Assembly: GCF_011604685.1 (NCBI RefSeq)
Contig: NZ_CP050063.1
Location: 1,014,501-1,078,500, forward strand
Source of the DNA: Spirosoma aureum
GTDB lineage: Bacteria; Bacteroidota; Bacteroidia; Cytophagales; Spirosomataceae
DNA length: 64,000 nucleotides
Direction of reading: 5' to 3'
How positions within the stretch are numbered: the first letter of the stretch is position 1; each line of letters begins with the position of its first letter. The position numbers and the translations under genes are program-made. The notes below the pieces were generated by a model. That model was not told where the DNA came from. It ran no database searches and worked only from the letters and a program-made list of their open reading frames with translations. Of this stretch, positions 47,966-62,118 are shown piece by piece.

Positions 47966-49471
47966 TCATTTGCCAGGCGATGCCGACACCGCCCGGAGTT
48001 GCTCGATGGTTGCCTGAATAGTCTTCGTTCGTTGCTGGTGTGCCAGAACAGTCGGGGGGGCGGCCCGCACGGTACAGTCAGCGATAGGGCAACGCTCACA
48101 AGTCTCGCCTACCTGAACGGTTGGCAACTTCGGGTCACCGATAAAGGGGATCTTCTCGAGCAGCGTTTCGTCGATGGGAAAGCCAATGTTAATGCTGCTA
48201 TTATCAGGGGTGGGGGGCGACGATTTGGCAATCGAAAAGACAAAATACGTCGTGTTGTTGGTCACGAATGAAATGCGCTGCGCCCGGCAAATAGGTTGCC
48301 CATCCCACTGCCCCGATTCCTGAAGCTGACGAAGTTCGTTCAGAATCGTCACCGACATCTGTCTGCGGCAATAATGTTCGTCGCGGGCAATGCCATGAGG
48401 GGTATGTAGCTTACTTAAGTGCAATTCCTTGGCCATAATAAACCGGCCATTGAGTAACTGATTGAAGCGCAGAAAAAACAAATTATTTAACCCGAAATCA
48501 CCCGATAGCAGATTGGTAACCCGTAGCAGAAACATCTCCGGTGTCACTGTAAACTGAGCCAGCATCTGTAGCATTCGTTCGTTGTCCCAATCGGGTTGCT
48601 GCACCATTATTCTTAGTTTGTCGAGTAGCTGCTGCCGGGGAATCAGAATGCAGCGGGCGAAGTAAGACGCCTGGAAGTTATGCAGCACTTCATCAAACGA
48701 TCTGGCTTCCAGTACAGATGATTCGAGCGGCCGGATGGTTAGCCCGAGCCAGTGATAACCTACTTCCCGCGACAGCGTAAAGACTTGTTGTTCAGTGGAT
48801 AACTCCCTGTTTACAAGCAGCTTTTGTTGTTCTGGCAGGTAGACCGATCGAAGCGACATCAGAGCAGGCTGTGTGGTTTCGTCGTAAAACTCGACGGTAC
48901 AGCCATAGACCTCATTCAGAACCCGAATTAGCCAGCTGGCATACTGGCCGGGCAATTCGGGCAGTGGATAATCGGTCAGGAAGGTGTCGGCCTGCTTTTC
49001 GAGTTCCTCGAAATAGTTATTGTGCATGGCCTGGTACGTCCGTAGGGCCGAAAAATAAAACTGCTCGACGCTCAGATCGTAATTTCGCCCAATTTCGATC
49101 AGTGTATTGATAAATGCGCTCAACTTGGCCGGGGCACTGGCCATCACTTCCAGAAAGTAGCCTGGCTCAATACCAAACAGATCCAATGGTAATTCGGTCA
49201 GAATGTTGGAGTTAAGTAGTTCAACAACCGGCTCCAGCGACTTACTGACCTGAAGTGATACAAGGGTATCATAACTGCTATTGAGCGCTTTGGCTAAAGC
49301 AAATATCTTCTCGGTCTTCGGGTACTTTTTCCCTTTTTCGATTTCGTTCAGGTACGATGGTGATAAACCTGTTCGGTCGGCCAGGTCATAGGTCGATAAG
49401 CCCAGATCATTGCGTAGTTGCTTGATTTTCAGGCCAAAAATGAGTCTTACTTTCTCCCGGTCAGTTGTCAT
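47966..49471 (-). CDS. XRE/IrrE-like transcriptional regulator (RamB/PrpR type)
   Basis: 501 residues. Residues 8-63 are a Cro/CI helix-turn-helix (LRNDLGLSTYDLADRTGLSPSYLNEIEKG). Residues about 190-330 resemble the ImmA/IrrE fold, but the zinc HExxH is replaced by REVGYH, so peptidase activity is unlikely. The C-terminus has the Cys cluster GETCERCPIADCTVR seen in short-chain fatty-acyl regulators such as PrpR, where it is reported to bind an iron-sulfur cluster. These regulators sense acyl-CoA and control propionate, acetate or glyoxylate genes. It diverges from pckA-fbp, 92 bases from the pckA-side open frame, and is the likely controller. Confidence 0.82.
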   Translation of the reverse strand: MTTDREKVRLIFGLKIKQLRNDLGLSTYDLADRTGLSPSYLNEIEKGKKYPKTEKIFALAKALNSSYDTLVSLQVSKSLEPVVELLNSNILTELPLDLFGIEPGYFLEVMASAPAKLSAFINTLIEIGRNYDLSVEQFYFSALRTYQAMHNNYFEELEKQADTFLTDYPLPELPGQYASWLIRVLNEVYGCTVEFYDETTQPALMSLRSVYLPEQQKLLVNRELSTEQQVFTLSREVGYHWLGLTIRPLESSVLEARSFDEVLHNFQASYFARCILIPRQQLLDKLRIMVQQPDWDNERMLQMLAQFTVTPEMFLLRVTNLLSGDFGLNNLFFLRFNQLLNGRFIMAKELHLSKLHTPHGIARDEHYCRRQMSVTILNELRQLQESGQWDGQPICRAQRISFVTNNTTYFVFSIAKSSPPTPDNSSINIGFPIDETLLEKIPFIGDPKLPTVQVGETCERCPIADCTVRAAPPTVLAHQQRTKTIQATIEQLRAVSASPGK

Positions 49472-49475
49472 ATCG

Positions 49476-49483
49476 CAAAAATA
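49476..49483 (-). promoter_or_regulatory. -7 box TATTTTTG for the regulator
   Basis: Minus-strand TATTTTTG fits TAnnTTTG and ends only 4 bases before the ATG at 49471, so the transcript is likely leaderless, as for pyrD. Confidence 0.45.
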
Positions 49484-49521
49484 GCTATTAACAGAGAATA
49501 CGTTCAGAAATCAATCATTTG

Positions 49522-49573
49522 TAGCGATTAAAAATAATTTAGCGAACATTCGCTTTTTTTGTAATGATCGCTA
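49522..49573. promoter_or_regulatory. TAGCGA half-site cluster in the divergent promoter
   Basis: TAGCGA occurs at 49522-49527 and 49540-49545, and inverted as TTCGCT (49549-49554) and TCGCTA (49568-49573). AGCGAA-CA-TTCGCT (49541-49554) is a perfect palindrome. They crowd the 90 bases between the regulator and pckA promoters. Likely operator. Confidence 0.5.
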
Positions 49574-49575
49574 AT

Positions 49576-49583
49576 TATATTTG
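49576..49583 (+). promoter_or_regulatory. -7 box TATATTTG for pckA
   Basis: TATATTTG matches TAnnTTTG. It lies inside the longest possible pckA frame, so transcription begins around 49590 and the start codon must be the later ATG at 49621. Confidence 0.55.
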
Positions 49584-49620
49584 TCGAGCAAACGATTTAT
49601 TCACCGAAACTCCAGCTTCT

Positions 49621-51228
49621 ATGGTCGCTAAAGTTGTTCGTCGTCCCCAGTCAATGCACACGTTGCCCAACGATAAGGCCCTGAAATTTCTGGGTGTGCA
49701 GACGAGTAAAGAAGTTCATTTTCAACTTTCGCCAACTGAACTGGTTGAGTACGCGCTACGTCGGGGTGAGGGCATGCTGACTAACACCGGCGCGCTGATG
49801 TGCACTACGGGGCGCTATACGGGCCGGTCACCTAAAGACCGGTATATTGTGCGCGATAGCCTGACCGATACGAAGGTTGACTGGGGAAAGGTGAATATTC
49901 CGTTCGACGAAAAACGATTCGATCAGCTTCACCGCCGTATGCGCCATTATGTGGAATATCATCCTGTTTTTGTGCGCTACGCACTGGCCGGTGCTGATCC
50001 GGCGCACCAATTGAAACTGTGTATACTGACCACGTCGGCCTGGCATAATCTGTTTTGTACCAATATGTTTCTGCGACCCGCAGATGACGAACTGGTCGAT
50101 TTTGAACCTGACTTTACGATACTGGCAATTCCTGACTTTCTGGCGATTCCGGATGAAGACCAGACCCGTGGCGGCAATTTTGCCATCCTGAATCTATCCA
50201 AACGGGTTATTCTGATTGGTGGTACGGGCTACGCGGGCGAAATCAAGAAAGGTGTTTTCTCGGCACTTAACTTCCTGCTGCCACATAAGAACATACTGCC
50301 TATGCACTGCTCAGCCAATGTCGATCTGGGCGATCCAACCGACGTAGCCTTATTTTTTGGGCTGTCAGGTACGGGTAAAACCACACTGTCGGCTGATCCC
50401 GAACGTGGCCTGATCGGCGATGATGAACATGGCTGGAGCGATGCGGGTATCTTCAATTTCGAAGGGGGCTGTTACGCTAAAGTCGTTGATCTGACCCGGG
50501 AACAGGAGCCGCAGATTTTCGATGCTATCCGTTACGGATCGATTGTGGAAAACACGCGTACGCTCCGCAACTCGCGCGTCGTCGACTACACCGATACAAC
50601 ACTGACGCAGAACACGCGCACGTCGTACCCGATTTCCTTCATCGACAATGCCGTTGAGCCGTCGGTAGGGACGCATCCCCGGAATATTTTCTTTCTGACC
50701 TGCGATGCCTTTGGCGTGCTTCCGCCTATTTCCCGATTGACACCCGAACAGGCGATGGATTATTTCATACTGGGCTACACGGCGAAAGTGGCGGGTACCG
50801 AAATGGGCGTTACCGAACCAGAAGCTACGTTCTCGGCTTGTTTCGGCGCTGCCTTTATGCCTCTGCATGTGAGTCAGTACGCTCAAATGCTGGGTGATAA
50901 AATCCGTCGGCACAATGTGAATGTGTGGCTTGTCAATACCGGCTGGACAGGCGGTGGTTTTGGCATAGGACAGCGTATGGAACTGGCTCACACCCGCGCC
51001 CTGATCCGGGCCGCGCTGGCTGGTAGGCTGATGGCCAGCCCCTTTGCAAAACATCCGGTATTCGGCCTGTCCATGCCGACAACCTGCCCGGGCGTACCAG
51101 CGAAAATTCTGGACCCACGCCAGACCTGGACCGACCCAGTGGCTTATGATGCGAAAGCTGACTATTTGAATAATCTGTTTACCGAAAAACGAGAATCCAT
51201 AACCAACCCTACGTCAGCTACTGTATGA
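49621..51228 (+). CDS. pckA: phosphoenolpyruvate carboxykinase (ATP)
   Basis: 535 residues from ATG 49621, the normal length; the open frame could reach 49564, but a promoter box lies between. The enzyme converts oxaloacetate plus ATP to phosphoenolpyruvate, the entry step of gluconeogenesis. The Walker A is [13 protein letters not shown] (around residue 240), followed by GDDEHGWSD, and the C-terminal [13 protein letters not shown] segment binds oxaloacetate and ATP. The stop overlaps the fbp ATG (ATGA at 51225-51228), so the two are translationally coupled. Confidence 0.94.
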
Positions 51229-52256
51229 TTACCTTTGTAGATACGGTTGTACCCATAACGGCGCAATCTACCCAACCGGATCTGGCTCTTCCGGTTGGCA
51301 CCACCCTGGATCGCTTCATCCTGAGTGAACAGAGTGCATTTCCGTTTGCTACGGGAGAACTGTCGCAGTTGTTGCGTGACATTGCGTTGGCCAGCAAGAT
51401 TATTAACCGTGAAATTAATCGGGCGGGATTAATCGATGTGACGGGTGCCACCGGAACGGATAACGTGCAGGGCGAATCGCAGCAAAAACTCGACGTTATT
51501 GCTAACATTCGGTTTATTCGTGCACTCAAGAATGGTGGCGAAGTCTGCGCCATTATCTCGGAAGAAGAAGATGATATAATTCTGACGGGCAACCCCAATG
51601 GTAAATACGTCGTAGCCATCGATCCGCTGGATGGATCCTCCAATATCGACGTTAACGTTTCTATTGGGACGATTTTCTCCATTTACCGTCGAGTGTCGCC
51701 CGTCGGCTCCGTACCTACACTTGCCGACTTGCTCCAAGGTGGTCGGCAGCAGGTGGCGGCCGGGTACGTACTATACGGTTCATCGACCATCCTGGTGTTT
51801 ACGACCGGGCAGGGTGTCAACGGCTTTACACTCGATCAGTCGCTGGGCGAATATATTCTTTCTCACACTGATATAAAGCAGCCCCGGACAGGTTCGATTT
51901 TTTCGTGCAACGAAGGGAACGTAGCGGAATACCCGGATAAGATCCAGACGTATTTGAATACCTGCAGACAACGCCGGATGACAGGTCGCTACATTGGCTC
52001 GCTGGTGGCCGATTTTCACCGAAATCTAATTAAAGGCGGTATTTACCTTTATCCGTCTACGCGTAAATCACCGGGAGGGAAACTCAGGCTGCTGTACGAA
52101 TGCTTCCCAATGGCGTTCATTGCCGAACAGGCTGGTGGAAAAGCAACCGACGGCAGGCAGGCTATTCTCGACATTACCCCCACAGATTTGCACCAGCGAT
52201 TGGTGCTGTATGTAGGTTCGCCTGATCTGATCGACGAGTTGCTTACGACAATATAA
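51225..52256 (+). CDS. fbp: fructose-1,6-bisphosphatase, class I
   Basis: 343 residues of class I FBPase, the irreversible late step of gluconeogenesis (fructose 1,6-bisphosphate to fructose 6-phosphate). The metal motif is [22 protein letters not shown], the phosphate-binding part is [25 protein letters not shown], and the N-terminal allosteric part is intact. It overlaps pckA by 4 bases. A perfect 19-bp hairpin begins at the stop codon. Such direct coupling to pckA is unusual. Confidence 0.93.
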
Positions 52257-52307: not shown

Positions 52308-53588
52308 TCAGGCAACAATTTCTTTCGGCTTTACGGACAGTTCTGGTTCGTCGCGGAGTTGCTGGCTGGCGTCGATCCTGAACCATAGCAGACCGCCCAC
52401 TATAACGATGCCGCCGATCAGCCGAACCGGAATTTCGTAGCTCCCTGTGGTGTGTAGGATGAAGCCGAAGGCAGTAGCCATAATGGCCGATCCCAACTGT
52501 CCGGCCAGGCCCATCGTACCCGACACTGCCCCGGCATGTTGCCCACCAATGTCGGTCGCGGCCGACCACGACACGGGCAGCGTGAAGTCTTTAAAGGCAA
52601 GTCCCAACCCCAACAGTACAATAGCGATGCTACTATCTTTGGTGAGTGAACCGGCAATCATGCAGATGCCCGCCATGACTAGCCCAAACATACCCACGTA
52701 GCGACGACCAAAGGTTAGTCCCCGTTTTTTTGTGAAATAATCGGAGGCAAATCCACCGGCCAGACAGCCGAATATCCCTAATATGAACGGAAGCGATACC
52801 ATCCATCCCAACTGCGATTTGGGAATACCCCGCCCGTTCTGCAAATATTTGGGCATCCACGACATGTAGAAATAAGCTCCGTAGAGCAGGCAATGATACA
52901 TACCCATCAGCGCCCAGATGCTGGAGTTACCGAATACCATTTTCCAGGAAAGTAGCTTGTGTGATACGGCCTTTACGGTGCGACTGGCTTCGATTTCGAT
53001 AATTTCGTCGGGAGTGATCCCCTTGATGTCGCGAGGTTCGTCGCGGAACCACCAGAACCAGTAAGCCGCCCAGAGCAGCCCCAACCCGCCAAACAGGTAA
53101 AACACGCCCCGCCAGCCAAAACTTTCGGCTAACTGGATCGACATAATAGGTGCCATTGCTCCACCCATTCGGCTACCCATCCAGACAATCGACTGCATAC
53201 GGCCCCGTTCGATCGACGGGAACCATCGGGCAATGGCTACCGATACGGTCGGAAACGCACCTGCTTCGCCTGCCCCGAACAAAAACCGAACGATCAACAG
53301 GAAGTAAAAGCCAGTAGCAAGACCTGTCAACAGCGTAAAAGCCGACCACCAGAGTACAATGCGGAAAAGGGTCTTACGGGGTCCCACCCGGTCGACCAGC
53401 AAGCCGGTTGGAATTTCAAAAGCTCCGTAGGCCAGCGAAAACGCCGACATAACTATGCCCCACTGCTGGTCAGACAGGCCAAGTTCGCGCGTGATATCGT
53501 CGCCTACTGACGAAATGGAATTGCGGTCGAGGTAGGTGATAATCGCAAAAACGACGAATACAAGAATGAGTTGATAGCGTTTTTTCAT
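52308..53588 (-). CDS. MFS transporter, anion:cation symporter type
   Basis: 426 residues with twelve membrane segments. The loop 2-3 motif is DRVGPRKTLFR and the early part reads IFAIITYLDRNSISSV as in ACS-type organic anion symporters (tartrate, galactonate, tricarballylate, phthalate). It would carry a carboxylate across the inner membrane with protons or cations. It is the last gene of the locus, 4 bases after the DMT gene. The substrate is inferred only from context. Confidence 0.82.
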   Translation of the reverse strand: MKKRYQLILVFVVFAIITYLDRNSISSVGDDITRELGLSDQQWGIVMSAFSLAYGAFEIPTGLLVDRVGPRKTLFRIVLWWSAFTLLTGLATGFYFLLIVRFLFGAGEAGAFPTVSVAIARWFPSIERGRMQSIVWMGSRMGGAMAPIMSIQLAESFGWRGVFYLFGGLGLLWAAYWFWWFRDEPRDIKGITPDEIIEIEASRTVKAVSHKLLSWKMVFGNSSIWALMGMYHCLLYGAYFYMSWMPKYLQNGRGIPKSQLGWMVSLPFILGIFGCLAGGFASDYFTKKRGLTFGRRYVGMFGLVMAGICMIAGSLTKDSSIAIVLLGLGLAFKDFTLPVSWSAATDIGGQHAGAVSGTMGLAGQLGSAIMATAFGFILHTTGSYEIPVRLIGGIVIVGGLLWFRIDASQQLRDEPELSVKPKEIVA

Positions 53589-53592
53589 GATA

Positions 53593-54492
53593 TTAGAGGT
53601 CGAGCTGTTTTGCGTTGTCAGCAGGCCGGGCCCGTCGGCGAAACGACAATAGCTGGCCGGTAAAAATCAAAACCATACCCAGAATACTTTGCCAGGAATA
53701 GTGCTCATCGAACGCAACGTACCCAACGATAATGGCGAAAAAGACTTCAGAATAGCGGATAATGGCTAGAAAGCTAATGTCTTCGGTAGGTGCCTGGATG
53801 GATTTGGTCATGAAGTTCTGGGCCCAGAACCCCACTATACCAATCAGCAGCAGCCAGCCTATATCGGCCAGCGTTGGCGTGTGCCAGTCAGTCAACGCGC
53901 CTACTCCACCCAGCATGGCTGAAATAGCCATAAAGTAGTGCAGAATGACCAGTGGATGATCGTCGTCGCCGATATGCCGGATGATAATGGCCAATAATCC
54001 ACCCGACACCGCCGACAGCAGCCCAATGCCCATGTCGAACACGCTGATGCGTGGGTTGAACCCTTTTAGAAGCAACACTCCCGAAAACGTAATGGCGTAG
54101 AACAACCACTGCCGATTCGACACTCGTTCGCCGAGAAATACCACCGCGAAGGCAGCAGTGGCGATTGGTGACAGGTATTTGAACGCTACCGCCGATCCAA
54201 ACGGAATGTGAGTGAGAATGTAGAAAAATGAAAACATCGAGATTGACCCCACCAGCCCCCGAAAAACCAGCATAGACTGATTTTTACCCACTAGCGATAC
54301 CCCGGTATAGCGCAGGCAGGCCACGCTCATCAACCAGCCGATCATTGACCGAAAAAAGATGTGCTGGGCACTGTTGAACTGAGGCAACAGCTTAATCAGC
54401 GACTGCATAATGGTGAAGCAGAGCGTGCTCAGAACCATATACTGAATGGATCGGCTGATTCCATTCAGACAGGGTGGGTTAGTAGAAGACAT
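53593..54492 (-). CDS. DMT (EamA) family permease
   Basis: 299 residues with ten hydrophobic segments in two EamA repeats (LVGKNQSMLVFRGLVGSISMFSFFYIL and the matching second half SYEVFFAIIVGYVAFDEHYSW-like stretch). Its start overlaps the PrpF gene's end by 14 bases and its stop is 4 bases from the MFS start, so it is translationally linked. It could export or import the carboxylate. A role as drug/metabolite exporter is the family default. Confidence 0.8.
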   Translation of the reverse strand: MSSTNPPCLNGISRSIQYMVLSTLCFTIMQSLIKLLPQFNSAQHIFFRSMIGWLMSVACLRYTGVSLVGKNQSMLVFRGLVGSISMFSFFYILTHIPFGSAVAFKYLSPIATAAFAVVFLGERVSNRQWLFYAITFSGVLLLKGFNPRISVFDMGIGLLSAVSGGLLAIIIRHIGDDDHPLVILHYFMAISAMLGGVGALTDWHTPTLADIGWLLLIGIVGFWAQNFMTKSIQAPTEDISFLAIIRYSEVFFAIIVGYVAFDEHYSWQSILGMVLIFTGQLLSFRRRARPADNAKQLDL

Positions 54493-55636
54493 ATCCCTGC
54501 ATTAATTTGCGGGCTGTTCGCATCGTACCGACCTTCCGAACCTGAATCTGATCGCCCTGTCTGTCGAGTTCAATGTTGACTTCGATCACGCCCGCTGGAT
54601 GCTCGATTACGACAAGTTCGGTCGGTTTGCCGTTTTCGCGGCCAACTTCACTGGCTACGGTGCCTTTGATCTTCAAGGCCGTACCGATACAGATAGCCCC
54701 TGTAACCGCGTGGCTGGGGTGCAAGCTATGTGGAGTCAGATATCGTGACCGGATATTGGCTGCTTCAGTCTGGGGTGTCGAGAGAATACCAATCTTGGGT
54801 AGTACACTGTTCGATACGTCACCCAGCCCCGCCAGCCGACCAGCTTCCCGGCGGATGCGTTCCAGCCGTTCCATCAATGCCCGGTTCGTTTTAAAAAAAG
54901 TTTCGTCTTCGCCCCCCGTTAGGCCAATGGCATCGGCCCGTAGCAGCACCATCACCGTGCCCGCGTCCAGAATCGACACGTCCAGGCTGTCGATTCGGTC
55001 TTTGAGGTGGCCAGTGGGAAGAAGTTTCTTTGTTTTGCTACCGACCTGATCAAACAGGTTCATGAGGATGGGGGCCGCCGTTCCCGGCACACCGTCGATC
55101 CGGGCCGTACCGTTATACTGCACCCGACCGTTGGGAGTCTGCACGATCTCCTCAATGACAGAATTCGTGTTGATATTGTAGATCATCACCTTCGTTTCGG
55201 GATTGGTGACCTTTACCCAGCCCTTCTCGATGGCAAACGGACCAACGCCCGCCATCATGTTACCACAAGGTGGGAGGGTATCGACGAGTGGATTTTCCAG
55301 ATCGATCTGAGCGAACAGGTAATCGACGTCGATGCCGGGGCGAGTCGACGGCTGGGCCATTACGACCTTACTCGTTACGGTTTCTGCTCCACCCAGTCCG
55401 TCAATTTGCCGGGCGTCAGGCGACCCCATGATCCGCAGTAGAATCGCGTCGCGCTCGGCGCGGTTGCGTGGCAGATCGCGTAGGTCCAGGAACGGGCCAC
55501 GCGATGTGCCTCCACGCATAAACACGCATGGAATGGCGTTGGCGGGTGGTGCAATCGCTTGGCACTGGGCCAGCATTGGGTATATACCGGCGTTCCAGTA
55601 CAGAAGTCCAATCAGGAGTGCGGTAAGGCGTTTCAT
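54479..55636 (-). CDS. PrpF/GalD-type isomerase with N-terminal export signal
   Basis: 385 residues of the PrpF fold: ANAIPCVFMRGGTSRGPFLDL, then PDARQIDGLGGAETVTSKVV, and PPCGNMMAGVGPFAIEKGWV with the catalytic Cys. Relatives isomerise 2-methylaconitate, aconitate or 4-oxalomesaconate. Unlike them it carries about 24 extra N-terminal residues (MKRLTALLIGLL to MLAQ) that read as a signal peptide. Its ATG overlaps the TcuA stop (ATGA 55633-55636), which fixes the start. Export would move the reaction to the periplasm. An internal Met at residue 21 is an alternative start. Confidence 0.75.
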   Translation of the reverse strand: MKRLTALLIGLLYWNAGIYPMLAQCQAIAPPANAIPCVFMRGGTSRGPFLDLRDLPRNRAERDAILLRIMGSPDARQIDGLGGAETVTSKVVMAQPSTRPGIDVDYLFAQIDLENPLVDTLPPCGNMMAGVGPFAIEKGWVKVTNPETKVMIYNINTNSVIEEIVQTPNGRVQYNGTARIDGVPGTAAPILMNLFDQVGSKTKKLLPTGHLKDRIDSLDVSILDAGTVMVLLRADAIGLTGGEDETFFKTNRALMERLERIRREAGRLAGLGDVSNSVLPKIGILSTPQTEAANIRSRYLTPHSLHPSHAVTGAICIGTALKIKGTVASEVGRENGKPTELVVIEHPAGVIEVNIELDRQGDQIQVRKVGTMRTARKLMQGYVFY

Positions 55637-57180
55637 GAGTTTAGCGAAGATGGTTTCTGAAGGCTGTATTGTGCTGCCGACTTGCCCGCGTACCGCCCGA
55701 AAACTGCACCAGAAGTCAGGCCGGAGCCGCCAGGGTACCCGTGGAAGAAAACGCCCCCCACAAGTTCGCCACAGGCAAACAGTCCTGGGATCGGTTCATC
55801 AGTAGCGTTTAGCACTTCGCCGTTTCGATTTACGGCCAGGCCACCGTACGTGAAGGTAATACCGCATGTAACGGGATAGGCTTTGAACGGCGGAGTGGTA
55901 AGCGGATTAGCCCAGTTGGTTTTTTCGGGAGAAAGGCCCTGGGTTCGTTTTCCATCTTTTCGGGTGGGATCGAACGGTATGTGATGACTGATTTCAGTGG
56001 CCCGATTATACGCGTCAACGGTCCTCAAGGCAGTAGCCTGATCGATGCCGTCGAGTTTCCCGATCAGGTCGCTCAGGGTATCGGCTTCCACTACGCTTGC
56101 GAACCGGAATCGATAGTCAGCGTAGAGATATGGTTCGACACTGGCGTCGAAAAGCTGCCAGGCTACGTTTCCTGGCTGCTCGATGATTGCTTTACCGAAC
56201 TGGGCATAGGTGTAGTTTCGCATATCCAACCCTTCATCGACGAACCGCTCTCCGAGCGCGTTGAGCATCAATCCGTACAGGTATGATATTTTTCGGTAGT
56301 GCTTGCGTTCGTTGTGCGGCAGGTCGGTGTTGCCATAGTCGGGCATGTTCTTATCCATCGGCACGGCATGGCATCCGCCAAAATTGCCTCGCAGAGCCGC
56401 CCCCAGTTTAGTGGCCAGTTCGAGACCCTTACCCGTGTTGTGGCGCGTGCCCCGCACCTTGGCGTCGGTCCAGGCATCGCCAAGAAACTGCGTTCGTAGT
56501 TCTTTACTGGCTTCAAATCCCCCGCAGCCCAGCACCACTGTCCGGCACGGAATCCAGAGAGGTATTCCGGAGCGCAGGCATCGCACGCCCCCCATTTTTC
56601 CATTCTGCATCACGACTTCTTCCGCGGAGCAATTGTACAGGATCGTTCCCCCCAATCGTTCAAACTCCGCCCGTTCGGCTCGTACCAGCCCGTCGCCTTC
56701 ACCTTCTACGTCAAGGGCCAACCCGCCCCAGAACGTATGCCGCCCGTCTTTCAGAAAACTCTGCCGGGCATAGCTTGGGTCGAAACGAATATTATGACTC
56801 GATAGCCACTGCATGACGCTCAGGCTTTCATCGACCAGAAACTGCTGGGTTTCGGTGGGTGGTTCGCCCTGGTTAAAATACTGGAGGTCGGCTAGGAACT
56901 GCTCTTTCGGGTAGCTGCCGAAATCAGTATTTGCCAACCGATCGTCGGTCAGATCGCGGATCAGGGGCTTCAGATCCTCGTAAGAATCGAAGGCGAAGCG
57001 CATAGCTCCGGCTGTGTAGCGGCTATTGCCTCCCCACTCCAGGGCATCGGCCTTTTCGACCATCAACACATGAGCACCGTTTTCGAGGGCCGAAATGCCT
57101 GCGCACATGGCCGCACTTCCGCTCCCGATAATTAATACGTCGACACCTGGCAATTCGCCCTGGTTAGGTATAATCGTCAT
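55633..57180 (-). CDS. TcuA-like FAD-dependent tricarballylate dehydrogenase
   Basis: About 515 residues, starting at MTIIPNQ; 9 upstream codons are possible. The flavoprotein of the fumarate reductase/succinate dehydrogenase type has the FAD loop VLIIGSGSAAMCAGISALENGA, GGNSRYTAGAMRFAF, and a late GLFACGELVGGVFFHGYPGGSGLTSG. TcuA oxidises tricarballylate to cis-aconitate. TcuB, its usual electron-transfer partner, is not in the window. It is translationally coupled to PrpF and lies 46 bases after the receptor gene. Confidence 0.78.
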   Translation of the reverse strand: MTIIPNQGELPGVDVLIIGSGSAAMCAGISALENGAHVLMVEKADALEWGGNSRYTAGAMRFAFDSYEDLKPLIRDLTDDRLANTDFGSYPKEQFLADLQYFNQGEPPTETQQFLVDESLSVMQWLSSHNIRFDPSYARQSFLKDGRHTFWGGLALDVEGEGDGLVRAERAEFERLGGTILYNCSAEEVVMQNGKMGGVRCLRSGIPLWIPCRTVVLGCGGFEASKELRTQFLGDAWTDAKVRGTRHNTGKGLELATKLGAALRGNFGGCHAVPMDKNMPDYGNTDLPHNERKHYRKISYLYGLMLNALGERFVDEGLDMRNYTYAQFGKAIIEQPGNVAWQLFDASVEPYLYADYRFRFASVVEADTLSDLIGKLDGIDQATALRTVDAYNRATEISHHIPFDPTRKDGKRTQGLSPEKTNWANPLTTPPFKAYPVTCGITFTYGGLAVNRNGEVLNATDEPIPGLFACGELVGGVFFHGYPGGSGLTSGAVFGRYAGKSAAQYSLQKPSSLNS

Positions 57181-57226
57181 CAGATAGATAGGTAGAGGCC
57201 CCGGCAAATCGGGCCGGGGTCTGGTA

Positions 57227-60200
57227 TCAAAATGCGTAATTAACGGTCAGATTCAGAAACCGTCCCTGCATACCGAATTGATTGGTCCGTCGTGAGAATA
57301 CCACTTCGTTAGCCGTTTGAGGTACCTGAAGCAGGCTAGGGTAGACGTCGAAAATATTATTAGCCATGCCGATGATCGACAGCTTCCGGGTAGGCCGGAA
57401 CGTTACTGATGCATCAAACAGAGTCTTGGCCCCAAACACCTGATAAGTCGGTGCATTAATATCGGTGGGTTTCTGGGCCAGTGTCGCCAGTGGGTCCGAT
57501 ACCTGCCCAAATCGTGACCCGCGCAGCATCAGCCCGATTTTACCGAAGTCATAGGAAAGGGTTCCAATAAACTTGCCTTTGGGCAGCCCTTCGGTGATAT
57601 ACAGCGTTGCTACCTGATCGGCTACCTCGACGCCTGTCGAGGTTTTGCGCGTTGCCCGCAATGTTGTATTCATTGACGAGTAGGCCAGATTTATACCCAG
57701 TTTACTCTTCACTCCCAAAAGCCGATTGTAAGTCGTGACCAGCTCAAAACCACGGGTACGCGTGTCGATGGCGTTGACGAATACATTGGCCGATTGCGGG
57801 AAACCAGCGGCTACGAACTGCGTAATTTTTGAGACATTGATATTGCCTGAGAGCATGATGCGGTTATTAACGTCGATCTGATACAGGTCAGCTGTAAGGG
57901 TAAAATGCTGGCCGATTTTCGAAGTGATCCCCGCCGAATAATCCCACGAGATTTCCTGCTTCAGCCCGTCGACACCCAACTTTTGCGCCAGAACCGACGA
58001 AGCTGGAATAATGGGATTGATGATCGAATTGTTGTTGTTATCGAACGAGATATTAATGTAGTTACTGTAGTAAGTCTGCGTCATGGACGGCGCTCGAAAC
58101 CCCCGGCTGAACGAGGCTCGAACAGCAAATGGTTCAGCGATCTTGTAGCGGGAGTTGAGTTTGTACGACAGGTTGGAGCCGAAGTCGCTGTAGTTTTCAA
58201 ACCGTACGGCGGCTCCTACCAATAGTTTCCGGGTCAGATCGCTCTCTCCTTCGACATACACCCCAACATTGGTGCGCCCCCACTGACCGGCTGCCCGGTC
58301 GCTGAAGCCTTCCCGCCCCGACGACCCTACATCTTTGGTTTGTCGGAGTGGACCAGCTTCGTAGGAAGACGGATCGCCAGAGCGCAACCGGTAGGTTTCG
58401 TAGCGTATTTCCGTACCCGCACCGAGGTTGAAGTTCGGATAACTTCCCTGGCGGAAAGTACGGGCAATATCGGCATTGAACAGGGATTGTGTTATGCGGG
58501 TTTGCCCAACGTAGAACGACGTCGGCGACTGATCGCCCAAACTGGGATTTACCGTATTATTGGCATACCAGTCGACCTGGTTCATGCTTTGTGAGAGGCT
58601 GAAATCGCTATTCCAGTTTCCCGGTTTCCCTTTTATTCCAGCCGTCAGCGAGTAATCCAGCAGATTGGCTGGTGCTTCCGGGTTGTAGCCGTTCGGAAAG
58701 ATAGACAGCACCGATCGGCGAGTGTTTGACGGAGCCCTGGTAAACACACCCGTTACGACGTGCTTGTGCGTGTAACCGCCAAAGCCGTAGAGTTGCCAGT
58801 TGTTGTTGAGCGGCAGGCCCGCGTTGATGAACAACCCATAGGTGGTATTGCGGGCCGATCCCAGCACGGCCTGTTTCAGGTCGATGTTGTTCTGTTTGAC
58901 AAGCAGTGCATCCTGTACGGGGTCTGCGACAAAGAAGCCGCTTGATGCTTTGTATGAACCCGATCGATCGTAGCCATCCGTGTGCGAGTAGGTAAGCGTG
59001 GTGTTAACAAAGCCGCGTCGGGCCAGTTTTAGTCCAAAATTAGCGTTCAGGTTATACGTGGCCCCGTCGGTGATAAGCGCAGGTGGCGTATGTCTGGTCA
59101 CGTCCAGATTCGGTTTGGAATAGCCGATTCCCGTGAATACATTGACCGAACCTCCTTCGGCGGCATCGTTGAGTTCGAGGTTGATAACCCCCGCAATGGC
59201 ATCGGAGCCGTATTGAGCAGCCGCTCCGTCGCGCAGTACCTCGACCCGTTTTAGTGATAAAGCTGGCACGGCGTTAATGTCCGTTCCCACTTGTCCTTTT
59301 CCGACACCATCATTGATGCTCAGAAACGATACTTTGTGCCGACGCTTATTATTAACCAGCACCAGCACCTGATCGGGGCCCAGGCCACGCAACGTAGCTG
59401 GATCGACAAAAGGGGCCGCATCATTGATCCCGAACTTAACGGCGTTGAACGAGGGAGCTGCGAACGTAATAGCCTGCCCCAGATCGACTTGTCCTGACGT
59501 TTGAAGTTCTTTGGCGTTTATAACGTCAATAGCCACGGGCCTGTCGACATCCGTACGGGGTTGGGCAAACCGCGATCCTACCACAACGACTTCCGACAGG
59601 CTGGCTTCCGACTGTTTCATCCCAATGGTGAGCGGAGTAAAGCTTTCGATGACCAGCTCCCGGCTACTATAGCCGATGTACGAGAAGATTAGCGTTTCGC
59701 CCATGTTGGCGTCGATGCTAAAAAGGCCCTCGGGACTAGTGACCGTACCACGTTGGGTTCCTTTGATCACTATGCTGACGCCCGGCATGGCTTCGCCCCG
59801 CTCGTCCAATACTTTTCCAGTCATAGTTTCCATACTGGCGAGCCGAGGTGCGTTTGGGTGTGCGCCGGTCGAACGGTTCAGGATAATTTTGTTGCCGCTC
59901 ACTTCGTAGCTCAGTTGCAGGGGTTGTAGTAACTGATTCAGTACGTTTGATAGAGGTTCCTGTCGAATACTGAATGTCACCAGCCGATTGCTCTGAATCA
60001 GCCGGGAACTGAAGACAAACTTTACCTGCGCAAGCGTTTCAAGCTGGGCCAGCACACGTTCGAGCTGCTGATTGTAGCATTGAAGCGTTACGGTTCGGTC
60101 AAGTACTTCCTGGGCTCTGATTTCGGTAGCGTAGGTCAGTCCGGAAAATAGTAGAGTGACGAGTAACGGGGCGCAACTCAATTTCATGAGTTTGAGCAAC

Positions 60201-60229
60201 AGTGAATGCCGGGTAATGAAAAAATGCAT
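57227..60229 (-). CDS. TonB-dependent receptor with STN and carboxypeptidase-like domains
   Basis: 1000 residues, starting at MHFFITRH; 15 upstream codons lack a signal-like pattern. Order: signal peptide (to about residue 40), STN domain (about 45-110, DRTVTLQCYNQQLERVLAQLE), carboxypeptidase-regulatory-like domain (about 130-205), plug (about 220-340) and a barrel ending in FLNLTVNYAF. STN domains signal through FecR-type anti-sigma factors, and exactly such a pair is upstream. It should import a large or metal-bound substrate through the outer membrane. The linked TcuA and PrpF suggest a tricarboxylate. Confidence 0.87.
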   Translation of the reverse strand: MHFFITRHSLLLKLMKLSCAPLLVTLLFSGLTYATEIRAQEVLDRTVTLQCYNQQLERVLAQLETLAQVKFVFSSRLIQSNRLVTFSIRQEPLSNVLNQLLQPLQLSYEVSGNKIILNRSTGAHPNAPRLASMETMTGKVLDERGEAMPGVSIVIKGTQRGTVTSPEGLFSIDANMGETLIFSYIGYSSRELVIESFTPLTIGMKQSEASLSEVVVVGSRFAQPRTDVDRPVAIDVINAKELQTSGQVDLGQAITFAAPSFNAVKFGINDAAPFVDPATLRGLGPDQVLVLVNNKRRHKVSFLSINDGVGKGQVGTDINAVPALSLKRVEVLRDGAAAQYGSDAIAGVINLELNDAAEGGSVNVFTGIGYSKPNLDVTRHTPPALITDGATYNLNANFGLKLARRGFVNTTLTYSHTDGYDRSGSYKASSGFFVADPVQDALLVKQNNIDLKQAVLGSARNTTYGLFINAGLPLNNNWQLYGFGGYTHKHVVTGVFTRAPSNTRRSVLSIFPNGYNPEAPANLLDYSLTAGIKGKPGNWNSDFSLSQSMNQVDWYANNTVNPSLGDQSPTSFYVGQTRITQSLFNADIARTFRQGSYPNFNLGAGTEIRYETYRLRSGDPSSYEAGPLRQTKDVGSSGREGFSDRAAGQWGRTNVGVYVEGESDLTRKLLVGAAVRFENYSDFGSNLSYKLNSRYKIAEPFAVRASFSRGFRAPSMTQTYYSNYINISFDNNNNSIINPIIPASSVLAQKLGVDGLKQEISWDYSAGITSKIGQHFTLTADLYQIDVNNRIMLSGNINVSKITQFVAAGFPQSANVFVNAIDTRTRGFELVTTYNRLLGVKSKLGINLAYSSMNTTLRATRKTSTGVEVADQVATLYITEGLPKGKFIGTLSYDFGKIGLMLRGSRFGQVSDPLATLAQKPTDINAPTYQVFGAKTLFDASVTFRPTRKLSIIGMANNIFDVYPSLLQVPQTANEVVFSRRTNQFGMQGRFLNLTVNYAF

Positions 60230-60334
60230 AGATTTAAGGGGGTTTAGTATTGGCAATAAAAACCTGACGCCCATCGGGAGATGAGTAAAAACCCCCTTAA
60301 CTGCGCTGGAAACGGGTTTAGGGGAGCTTGCTAT

Positions 60335-60370
60335 CGGCAGCTCTGCGCTAACAGAGTTGCCGTTTTTTTT
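60335..60370 (+). terminator. plus-strand intrinsic terminator in a minus-strand operon
   Basis: CGGCAGCTCTG (60335-60345) pairs with CAGAGTTGCCG (60352-60362) and is followed by eight T on the plus strand. The flanking genes run on the minus strand, so it would stop antisense transcription. On the minus strand no T-run follows it, so it should not separate fecR from the receptor gene. Confidence 0.6.
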
Positions 60371-60384
60371 AACACTGTTTACAT

Positions 60385-61482
60385 TTATTTACAGCCTTTT
60401 CCATTGACGATGATCTGTCCATCGACGACTTCATACTGAGCTTCGATTGCCCGGCAGACCAGATTCAGCTTACCGTATAGTGATTCGTCGGCCAGCGACG
60501 CTGTAACCGGGCAATCGCTCATAAGATCAGCATCGTATTCAATGGGAATCCCGTAGGCTCGTTGAATACGCTCAAAGACAGTGGAAGCTGGTGTATTGCG
60601 AAAATCGAAAACGACTACTGCTTCGGGCTGAATCAATTGCGGACTCCCGACGATGCTCCGGGCAAAACTGTCAGTCTTTCGGTTGTAAACAAGCTGTTGA
60701 TTGGGCGTGATAATAACGCCCTGAAGCTTTTTGACAGCCACCGATCGGCTAACCTCTGTTTCGCGATAGACGGATACTTTACCCGTCCGAACCACCACCT
60801 CAACTCCTTCCTGATCAGTTCGAGCCTTCACCAAAAAGCTGGTTCCCAATACCTTTGTTACAATTTCGCCAGCATGGACCAGAAAGGGCTGCTTCGGATT
60901 CCGGGCCACGTCGAAAAAACCGTCACCATCCAGATATACCTCCCGGACTGCTCCTGTGAACCGGGCGGGATAGCTTAGTCGGCTGTTTTTAGCCAGCCGA
61001 ATCCAACTACCATCAGGCAGGTCGACGCGGAGCGGCTCACTGTTGGGGTTGACTTGCTCGATAAGATCTTTCTGGCTTACCTGCTGGGTGTAAAGCGAAG
61101 CAGGAATGGTGGTTTGGTACACGTAGGTCCATATGCCTACGGCGAGCAGCACCGACGCGGCCAGCCCCCACCGCACCCAGTTGTTGTCCCAGAGTGGCCG
61201 AGCGATCGGATGGTGGATTGTGTTGGTCAGGCTGTCCTGCATCTGAAGGAATTGCTGGCGGATGTATTCCTCCGACCACTTGAGTGAGAGTCGGTTTAAG
61301 ATCGAAACAGCGGCATCGACCGTCGGCAACTGATCGGGATGGTCTTCCAGAAACTCATTCCACTCCCAAACGTCGGCTTCGTTTTTTTGAAAATAAAAGT
61401 TCAGAAAGCCTTCGTTGGTTAGCAGGTCGTCAAGAATAAGCGGGTACGTTGGTTTCACCACGACGCATCGGTTGGTCTTCAT
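60385..61482 (-). CDS. FecR-family anti-sigma regulator
   Basis: 365 residues. A cytoplasmic part (1-105) is followed by a single membrane segment WGLAASVLLAVGIWTYVY (about 108-125) and a periplasmic FecR domain (about 140-250, VDLPDGSWIRLAKNSRLSYP, GDGFFDVARNPKQPFLV, VKVLGTSFLVKA). The C-terminal domain resembles the STN-like fold (ASTVFERIQRAYGIPIEYDADLM). It relays the state of the receptor's STN domain to the sigma factor. It lies between sigma and receptor genes in the standard order. Confidence 0.88.
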   Translation of the reverse strand: MKTNRCVVVKPTYPLILDDLLTNEGFLNFYFQKNEADVWEWNEFLEDHPDQLPTVDAAVSILNRLSLKWSEEYIRQQFLQMQDSLTNTIHHPIARPLWDNNWVRWGLAASVLLAVGIWTYVYQTTIPASLYTQQVSQKDLIEQVNPNSEPLRVDLPDGSWIRLAKNSRLSYPARFTGAVREVYLDGDGFFDVARNPKQPFLVHAGEIVTKVLGTSFLVKARTDQEGVEVVVRTGKVSVYRETEVSRSVAVKKLQGVIITPNQQLVYNRKTDSFARSIVGSPQLIQPEAVVVFDFRNTPASTVFERIQRAYGIPIEYDADLMSDCPVTASLADESLYGKLNLVCRAIEAQYEVVDGQIIVNGKGCK

Positions 61483-61557
61483 CTATACAGAGGAACCTTA
61501 TCGTCTGAATCTTCCTGTTTTTTGTAGAAAAAATTGTAGAAAATTTATACTAATTGC

Positions 61558-62118
61558 TCAGATTGGCTTCAGCAGCGTTTTTAAACGCTTCAATGCTTCG
61601 TGTAACGTCTTATAAATACTGTCGATTTGGAGGCCTGTCTGCTCTGAAATTTCTTTATACGACAGTTCTTCAAAGTATTTGAGTGTAATGATCTGTTTCT
61701 GGCGAGAGGTCAGTTCATTCATCGCCTGTACAAGCTGACTGCGCCGAATAGCATCTTCTTCCTGTGCCACGAGAATTTCTTCATAAGATGTTACAGGTAG
61801 ATAAACCCCATCAAGCGGCTCTGTAGCTGTCCGCTGGAGTTTGATTACGGCTTTCGCAAGCCTTTTTTTTAACGAACCTTTCAGATAGGCTTCAAACGAC
61901 ACCACGTCGCCTAGTGTGTGCCTGTACTGCCAGAGATCCTGAAAGATCGCCTGAATGGCTTCTTCGGTTAGGGTACTGTCAAATGACCATTTTATCCCAG
62001 TCCGAAAAAGTGGATTGTAATACGTATTAAATAGATACTGAAGCGCCTTCTCATCATTTTGCCTGAGGGCTTGAAGAATCAGAGCATCTACATATTGACC
62101 ATTTTCTGCATTATTCAT
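61558..62118 (-). CDS. ECF-type RNA polymerase sigma factor
   Basis: 186 residues with region 2 (YLFNTYYNPLFRTGIKWSFDSTLTEEAIQAIFQDLWQYR) and region 4 (MNELTSRQKQIITLKYFEELSYKEISEQTGLQIDSIYKTLHEALKRLK). No region 3, as is typical of ECF factors. It should direct RNA polymerase to the downstream genes when FecR and the receptor signal. The fecR gene starts 75 bases downstream on the same strand. Confidence 0.9.
   Translation of the reverse strand: MNNAENGQYVDALILQALRQNDEKALQYLFNTYYNPLFRTGIKWSFDSTLTEEAIQAIFQDLWQYRHTLGDVVSFEAYLKGSLKKRLAKAVIKLQRTATEPLDGVYLPVTSYEEILVAQEEDAIRRSQLVQAMNELTSRQKQIITLKYFEELSYKEISEQTGLQIDSIYKTLHEALKRLKTLLKPI

What the first reader, a model, noticed from the sequence alone, without database searches (positions are those of the whole stretch)
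52308..62118. ECF sigma/FecR/TonB receptor locus joined to TcuA, PrpF-like isomerase and two permeases
Seven same-strand genes run sigma, FecR, receptor, TcuA-like, PrpF-like, DMT, MFS, with the last four overlapping or within 46 bases. FecIRA-type systems usually serve ferric citrate or glycans; here the catabolic genes point to tricarballylate or aconitate as the imported or metal-bound ligand. TcuB is missing, so electron transfer must use another partner. I know of no described system with this composition.
Basis: partly seen in the sequence, partly recalled or inferred. Interest (0 to 1): 0.8.

Follow-up and report, generated by a model that had tools for sequence, protein, structure and literature searches.

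The report
TonB-dependent tricarboxylate uptake and catabolism locus
A recurring gene block in some Bacteroidota appears to sense, import and break down plant-type tricarboxylic acids through an active outer-membrane receptor, and in this lineage one of its enzymes appears to have been moved outside the inner membrane.

Summary
The seven genes are real and in the stated order. The TcuA-like/PrpF-like/EamA/MFS core recurs in 8 of 222 genomes of the window's family (own included) and in 2 of 17 TcuA-bearing genomes of a Saprospiraceae family sample; sigma, FecR and receptor precede it in 7 of these 10. In 14 of the 17, TcuA instead shares a contig with a tripartite tricarboxylate transporter (TctC/TctAB). 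One related locus (L140) has receptor, TctC/TctAB and PrpF with canonical TcuA plus TcuB. These exchanges make a tricarballylate/aconitate-type acid the best-supported substrate. Most likely tricarballylate (TcuA) and trans-aconitate (PrpF) are funnelled to cis-aconitate.

New point: in 10 of 10 MFS-type loci the isomerase carries an export or lipoprotein-like signal, in 0 of 12 TctABC-type loci; this is one evolutionary change and unproven. Against a strict unit: 5 of the 17 loci have upstream sequence but no receptor, and two of the 17 genomes show no PrpF. Ligand, metal involvement and electron acceptor are untested.

The parts
61558..62118 (-). ECF sigma factor
   Evidence: TIGR02937 70.7 bits against cut-off 42.9; Sigma70_r4_2
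60385..61482 (-). FecR-type anti-sigma/relay protein
   Evidence: PF04773 FecR 54.7 bits, PF16344 FecR_C 38.5 bits, both over cut-off
57227..60274 (-). TonB-dependent receptor with STN signalling domain
   Evidence: STN, CarbopepD_reg_2, Plug and barrel domains over cut-off; relatives beside TcuA in 9 of 17 Saprospiraceae loci
55633..57207 (-). FAD-dependent TcuA-like dehydrogenase of a TcuB-free clade (TTG start; an in-frame ATG lies nine codons in)
   Evidence: NF006130 527.6 against 369, TIGR02485 223.8 against 372.55; tree of 28 rows; R330 and H280
54479..55636 (-). PrpF-superfamily isomerase, probably aconitate isomerase, with N-terminal signal sequence (residues 1 to about 23)
   Evidence: PF04303 345 bits; K90 and C124 conserved; N-terminus compared with relatives
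53593..54492 (-). EamA/DMT-family permease, role unknown
   Evidence: PF00892 87.1 bits; broken by an internal deletion in L042
52308..53588 (-). MFS permease, probable inner-membrane importer
   Evidence: PF07690 204.4 bits; closest solved structure D-galactonate transporter 160 bits; its place is taken by TctC/TctAB in related loci

Best explanation
A substrate-inducible uptake and catabolism locus for tricarboxylates of the tricarballylate/aconitate type. The receptor binds the acid, free or metal-bound, signals through its STN domain to FecR and the ECF sigma factor, and takes the acid into the periplasm (inferred from architecture). The PrpF-family enzyme, predicted to be exported in this lineage, converts trans- to cis-aconitate (inferred). 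The MFS carrier brings the acids in (inferred from its exchange with TctC/TctAB). Inside, the TcuA-like flavoenzyme oxidises tricarballylate to cis-aconitate and hands electrons to a partner other than TcuB, perhaps electron-transfer flavoprotein (inferred). Cis-aconitate enters the TCA cycle through aconitase (inferred; aconitase was not searched for). Shown here: gene content, recurrence, the exchanges, absence of TcuB, conserved catalytic residues, the N-terminal signal. Not shown: any activity, ligand or induction.
For: Core in 8 of 222 family genomes and in 2 of 17 Saprospiraceae-family genomes; TctC and/or TctAB on the TcuA contig in 14 of those 17; receptor before TcuA in 9 of 17 and ECF plus FecR in 6 of those 9; canonical TcuA (597.5 bits, cut-off 372.55) and TcuB (436.4, cut-off 246.6) in L140 with receptor, TctC, TctAB and PrpF; isomerases of this system form one clade of 22 rows, 100/100, apart from gallate-type copies; K90 and C124 in 22 of 22, matching the two residues tested in Shewanella PrpF, which isomerises aconitate (PMC5690661, passages); Bacillus TarA, a PrpF-superfamily aconitate isomerase paired with an MFS importer (PMC11495376, abstract and passages).
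Against: The flavoenzyme is not in the TcuB-linked clade and has R where canonical TcuA has W, so its substrate may differ. The TcuAB exchange rests on one genome. Five of the 17 loci have upstream sequence without a receptor (L032, L034, L035, L122, L124), and PrpF was not found at E<=1e-20 in the genomes of L032 and L034, so receptor and isomerase are not obligatory (or these MAGs are incomplete). Relatives of the flavoenzyme in Alphaproteobacteria sit with other genes such as phosphosulfolactate synthase. NCBIfam names the isomerase 4-oxalomesaconate tautomerase, just over cut-off. TctC-type receptors are large families with varied ligands (recalled).
Confidence: 0.65

Rival explanations
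1. Iron acquisition: the receptor and sigma/FecR pair import ferric tricarboxylate or a citrate-type siderophore, and the enzymes only recycle the stripped ligand.
For: Fec-like order of sigma, FecR and STN-bearing receptor; closest solved receptors are ferric enterobactin receptors (PirA 62 bits).
Against: No ferric ABC permease among the seven genes; catabolic enzymes and TctC/TctAB as partners; receptors beside TcuA also occur without FecR and STN (L121, L033, L039, L140).
Confidence: 0.12
2. Part of gallate/protocatechuate meta-cleavage, with the isomerase acting as 4-oxalomesaconate tautomerase.
For: NF033377 443.9 bits, cut-off 440; L140 copy 455.5, but L126 copy 438.0, below cut-off.
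Against: Gallate-type copies of the same family score higher (L051 504.5), form their own clade and sit with a LigK-type aldolase in 12 of 13 fetched loci; no such genes here; the window's genome has one PrpF-family gene at E<=1e-20.
Confidence: 0.05
3. The flavoenzyme works as a reductase, using aconitate as electron acceptor, with a permease exporting tricarballylate.
For: Closest solved relatives are fumarate reductases and urocanate reductase; a second permease of unknown direction is present.
Against: In L140 the place is held by TcuA plus TcuB, an oxidative pair in Salmonella (recalled); no cytochrome domain and no export signal seen on the flavoenzyme; the EamA gene is broken in the close relative L042.
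Confidence: 0.07
4. The substrate is another branched or substituted di- or tricarboxylate (for example methylated or sulfonated), not tricarballylate or aconitate.
For: The flavoenzyme clade has varied company in Alphaproteobacteria, including phosphosulfolactate synthase, MmgE/PrpD and a citrate-lyase-type aldolase; active-site difference from canonical TcuA.
Against: Canonical TcuA plus TcuB in the related locus L140; no further catabolic enzyme in the operon, so the product should be a central metabolite.
Confidence: 0.11

Closest known systems
tcuRABC tricarballylate utilisation operon (Salmonella; related locus in Acinetobacter)
   Same: Broad-family TcuA flavoenzyme and an MFS carrier; probable entry at cis-aconitate (Salmonella pathway recalled; operon seen on a plasmid)
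   Different: TcuB and the LysR-type TcuR are absent from the window locus; flavoenzyme of another clade; receptor, sigma/FecR and isomerase added. In Acinetobacter the outer-membrane step is a DcaP porin (PMC12338516, passages)
TarRAB trans-aconitate assimilation system (Bacillus velezensis; PMC11495376, abstract and passages)
   Same: PrpF-superfamily isomerase with an MFS importer feeding cis-aconitate
   Different: No receptor, no flavoenzyme; dedicated regulator TarR instead of sigma/FecR. Sequence identity to TarA was not measured. That paper reports tarA homologues in Bacteroidota without describing loci in the passages I saw
Fec-type ECF sigma/FecR/receptor signalling units (FecIRA)
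   Same: Gene set and receptor STN domain
   Different: Catabolic enzymes and carboxylate permeases rather than a ferric ABC importer
YbhH / LigU / 3-methylitaconate isomerase / PrpF structures (6otv, 6p3h-k, 3g7k, 2pvz)
   Same: Same superfamily: 312, 292, 251 and 164 bits; catalytic Lys and Cys kept
   Different: Own clade with a predicted export signal in MFS-type loci

Membership tests
TcuA (TcuB-linked tricarballylate dehydrogenase) | Broad TcuA model NF006130 over cut-off | tested here: met
   527.6 against 369 bits
TcuA (TcuB-linked tricarballylate dehydrogenase) | TIGR02485 over cut-off | tested here: not met
   223.8 against 372.55 bits
TcuA (TcuB-linked tricarballylate dehydrogenase) | TcuB partner | tested here: not met
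   No TIGR02484 match at E<=0.001 in the genome; the model finds TcuB in L140
TcuA (TcuB-linked tricarballylate dehydrogenase) | Groups with TcuB-linked enzymes in a tree | tested here: not met
   Four canonical rows form a separate clade, 100/100
TcuA (TcuB-linked tricarballylate dehydrogenase) | Oxidises tricarballylate to cis-aconitate | not testable with these tools
   Needs an assay
PrpF 2-methylaconitate isomerase | TIGR02334 over cut-off | tested here: not met
   192.1 against 440.55 bits
PrpF superfamily | PF04303 and the catalytic Lys and Cys | tested here: met
   345.1 bits; K90 and C124, 22 of 22 in the clade
4-oxalomesaconate tautomerase (NF033377) | Model over cut-off | tested here: met
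   443.9 against 440 bits, a margin of 4; close homologue L126 falls below
4-oxalomesaconate tautomerase (NF033377) | Gallate/protocatechuate cleavage genes alongside | tested here: not met
   None among the neighbours scanned; contrast 12 of 13 paralogue loci
Fec-type cell-surface signalling unit | ECF sigma, FecR and STN-bearing receptor together | tested here: met
   All over cut-off
Fec-type cell-surface signalling unit | Ligand-dependent induction | not testable with these tools
   Needs expression data
SusC/SusD glycan system | SusC model over cut-off and SusD alongside | tested here: not met
   TIGR04056 105.7 against 368.25 bits; no SusD-type gene among the neighbours scanned
TarRAB | PrpF-superfamily aconitate isomerase next to an MFS importer | tested here: inconclusive
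   Both protein families present; homology to TarA/TarB not measured, activity unknown

The most novel reading that the evidence does not exclude
A catabolic isomerase changed compartment when its transporter changed. With the TctABC importer the PrpF-type aconitate isomerase stays in the cytoplasm; with the MFS importer it is exported as a periplasmic protein or lipoprotein, so trans-aconitate captured by a TonB-dependent receptor is isomerised outside the inner membrane before the carrier takes it in.
Probability: 0.4. Interest if true: 0.75.

Novelty: new variant of a known kind. Interest (0 to 1): 0.6.

Why it matters
It points to TonB-dependent, signal-relayed uptake of small plant tricarboxylates in Bacteroidota, where such receptors are mostly assigned to glycans, iron or B12 (recalled). 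It separates a TcuB-free branch of the TcuA family and a PrpF branch that a current model labels as a gallate enzyme. The predicted change of compartment with importer type is directly testable by fractionation.

Tried and rejected
Gallate and methylcitrate readings of the isomerase were tested and set aside. Steroid and urocanate readings of the flavoenzyme: the 3-ketosteroid models score 130 bits or less against cut-offs near 790, and urocanate reductase is distant (88 bits). Glycan (SusC/D) reading set aside.

Wider sampling for the TcuA-like gene at E<=1e-90 found only the window's own genome in 390 order and 395 phylum genomes; the samples evidently did not include the positives known, so they show rarity, not absence. 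Upstream regions of three close loci were aligned and showed no promoter element that I could point to.

Structure prediction of the flavoenzyme was asked for four times and never accepted, so no fold comparison was made.

Limits of the export claim. The match of signal to importer (10 of 10 against 0 of 12) is one change on the tree, and the MFS group itself has weak support (50/47). In the window and L042 the signal region is the least hydrophobic of those measured (best 12-residue mean 1.6) and its base changes look near-neutral (10 replacing, 3 silent in 33 codons), so for these two a later start at Met21 is possible. Signals were judged by eye and hydropathy; no SignalP-type tool was at hand. 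Rows left out of the 10/12 count: L115 (no signal, no importer on its contig), Paracoccus L119 and L133 (no signal, TctAB present, outside the clade).

The receptor argument is not exclusive: second-module receptors beside AEC/SDF carriers in L044-L046 score 610-671 bits against the window receptor, inside the range of the TcuA-linked ones, though they part from them in the tree (99/100).
Full report
Observation. Seven minus-strand genes at 52308-62118 encode, in transcription order, an ECF sigma factor, a FecR-type protein, a TonB-dependent receptor with STN domain, a TcuA-like FAD enzyme, a PrpF-superfamily enzyme, an EamA permease and an MFS permease. The last four overlap or are 4 bases apart; receptor and TcuA are 19 or 46 bases apart depending on the start codon.

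Recurrence in the family. The window lies in an unnamed 8.9-Mb one-contig genome. Of 222 genomes of its family, 35 have a PrpF-superfamily match at E<=1e-20. Eight, own included, have a close copy (65% identity or more), and in each the TcuA-PrpF-EamA-MFS core is seen, with the EamA gene internally deleted in L042. Sigma, FecR and receptor stand upstream in six; the contigs of L044 and L048 end inside TcuA. The more distant PrpF copies (36-50%) were followed at 13 loci (L049-L061): 12 hold a LigK-type aldolase and a PIG-L/LmbE-like protein, a gallate-like cluster; the 13th (L059) lies near an SDF carrier.

Recurrence outside the family. A scan of genome contigs returned 10 TcuA relatives, most from records titled Saprospiraceae. 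Of 398 genomes in the family of G914 (a Saprospiraceae MAG), 17 have one at E<=1e-100. Two of the 17 (L120, L121) have the window's TcuA-PrpF-EamA-MFS order. Fourteen have TctC and/or TctAB on the TcuA contig (L032, L034, L035, L036, L122, L123, L124, L126-L132). In one (L033/L125) the contig shows only receptor and TcuA, while TctC, TctAB and PrpF lie on another contig of the same genome (L116). A receptor stands directly before TcuA in 9 of the 17 (L120, L121, L123, L125-L130) and sigma plus FecR in 6 of those 9 (L120, L123, L126-L129). Five have upstream sequence and no receptor (L032, L034, L035, L122, L124); in three the contig leaves little or nothing upstream (L036, L131, L132). PrpF shares the contig in 10 of the 17. 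A genome-wide look in nine MAGs and one plasmid found a PrpF-family match in 7 of 10, and none in the genomes of L032, L034 and L040. So neither receptor nor isomerase is obligatory, unless those assemblies are incomplete. L039 (G919), outside the 17, has receptor, TcuA, TctC, TctAB and PrpF.

Canonical TcuAB in the same setting. L140 (G1316) reads receptor (47%), TctC, TctAB, PrpF (61%), then canonical TcuA (TIGR02485 597.5 bits, cut-off 372.55) and TcuB (TIGR02484 436.4, cut-off 246.6). Both the importer and the dehydrogenase can therefore be exchanged beside related receptors and isomerases. This is the strongest pointer to a tricarballylate/aconitate-type substrate; for the TcuAB exchange it rests on one genome.

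The FAD enzyme. It passes NF006130 but not TIGR02485. In a tree of 28 rows the four canonical rows (Salmonella, Acinetobacter, Methylobacterium, Paracoccus yeei) form a clade (100/100, branch 2.65), and the window falls in a 14-row clade (100/100) with the Bacteroidota copies, one MAG titled Rhizobiaceae and a Paracoccus plasmid copy. Of nine fetched plasmid loci with a closer relative (H1, H2, H3, H4, H6, H8, H9, H17, H18) none shows an annotated tcuB, against three of three annotated canonical loci (H28, H83, H112); that gene table is incomplete. R330 aligns with R402 of Shewanella flavocytochrome c3 (its catalytic role is recalled). It is R in 23 of 28 rows, W in the four canonical ones and A in Azospirillum; H280 is H in 28 of 28. 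No TcuB was found in the genome. An ETF alpha gene is present, and ETF genes lie beside a relative in Bradyrhizobium; ETF is a candidate acceptor, no more.

The isomerase. Its best solved relatives are YbhH (312 bits), LigU (292), 3-methylitaconate isomerase (251) and PrpF (164). In a 36-row tree the 22 copies of this system form one clade (100/100), apart from the five gallate-type copies included (100/100). The Lys and Cys tested in Shewanella PrpF (PMC5690661, passages) correspond by position in the alignment to K90 and C124, present in 22 of 22 and also in all 14 other rows, so they mark the superfamily, not the substrate.

Predicted export. In the ten MFS-type loci (window, L042-L048, L120, L121) the core is preceded by a hydrophobic N-terminal segment: five look like ordinary signal peptides and five have a cysteine as in lipoproteins (by eye). 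In L044, L047, L048 and L120 no start codon exists that would remove the segment, except one directly before the core motif. In the twelve TctABC-type loci with a PrpF (L116, L117, L118/L039, L123, L124, L126-L131, L140) the protein starts close to the core; in L123 the long ORF would overlap TctAB and ATG codons lie just before the core. The gallate-type copies printed also start at the core. On the tree, importer type and signal change once. The TcuA-type enzymes show no such segment.

The receptor. The best own-genome paralogue matches in two pieces of 202 and 185 bits. Receptors beside TcuA in other families score 600-1177 bits (a different program, so not strictly comparable). In the tree, own paralogues and second-module receptors part from the TcuA-linked ones at 99/100. 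Of ten receptors scanned, five of the six with FecR alongside give an STN hit at E<=1e-3 (three of them below Pfam's cut-off), L128 gives none, and the four without FecR alongside give none.

Model. Receptor capture and sigma/FecR induction; isomerisation in the periplasm in MFS-type loci; MFS import; dehydrogenation of tricarballylate inside; both acids meet at cis-aconitate. Each biochemical step is inferred. The PCK and FBP genes next door (PCK has no second copy in the genome) would fit growth on TCA-cycle acids but may be coincidence.

Literature. Ten searches gave no title or abstract start that describes such a locus. I opened three papers, by abstract or passages only: PMC11495376, PMC5690661, PMC12338516. 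Three other papers holding both 'tricarballylate' and 'TonB-dependent' (PMC4465626, PMC3224125, PMC3669393) were seen as listings only. The A. baylyi tricarboxylate paper (PMC10880598) is not held; I saw only its citation. Most subscription papers are not in the library. A periplasmic aconitate isomerase of another family in Pseudomonas is recalled, not checked.

Verdict. Real, recurrent, and best read as a Bacteroidota version of tricarballylate/aconitate utilisation with TonB-dependent uptake: a new variant of a known kind, with one unusual and testable feature, the predicted export of the isomerase.

Noticed in passing
L045:11346-18585; L044:2361-9189; L046:138-5698: A second receptor module with FecR (and ECF where the contig shows it) stands beside the locus, with an auxin-efflux-type carrier and, in L044 and L045, a DctA-like SDF carrier: possibly a sister module for C4-dicarboxylates.
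   Followed up: partly
L049-L058, L060, L061: A gallate-like cluster (LigK-type aldolase, PIG-L/LmbE-like protein, 6-phosphogluconate-dehydrogenase-like protein and 4-oxalomesaconate tautomerase; extradiol dioxygenase-type gene in 10 of 12) in other genomes of the family.
   Followed up: partly
window 47966-52256: PEP carboxykinase, fructose-bisphosphatase and a RamB-like HTH/M78 regulator (47.8 bits against cut-off 700) lie next to the locus; PCK is the only copy in the genome and also lies near the locus in L042 and, in a diverged form, in L048.
   Followed up: partly
L042:8069-8482: The EamA permease gene of genome G185 has lost 485 internal bases relative to the window, so this permease may be dispensable.
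   Followed up: yes
L047:4175-7201: The receptor gene of genome G144 is split into two ORFs, from a sequencing error or inactivation.
   Followed up: no
L068, L071: In Paracoccus versutus and Bradyrhizobium the TcuA-like gene lies near phosphosulfolactate synthase, MmgE/PrpD and PrpF-domain genes; in Bradyrhizobium ETF genes are divergent from it. Unexplained pathway.
   Followed up: no
L083: A tcuRAB-MFS operon lies on a conjugative IncHI1A Salmonella plasmid between transposase genes; 29 Salmonella and 26 Escherichia plasmid records hold a TcuA-type match.
   Followed up: no
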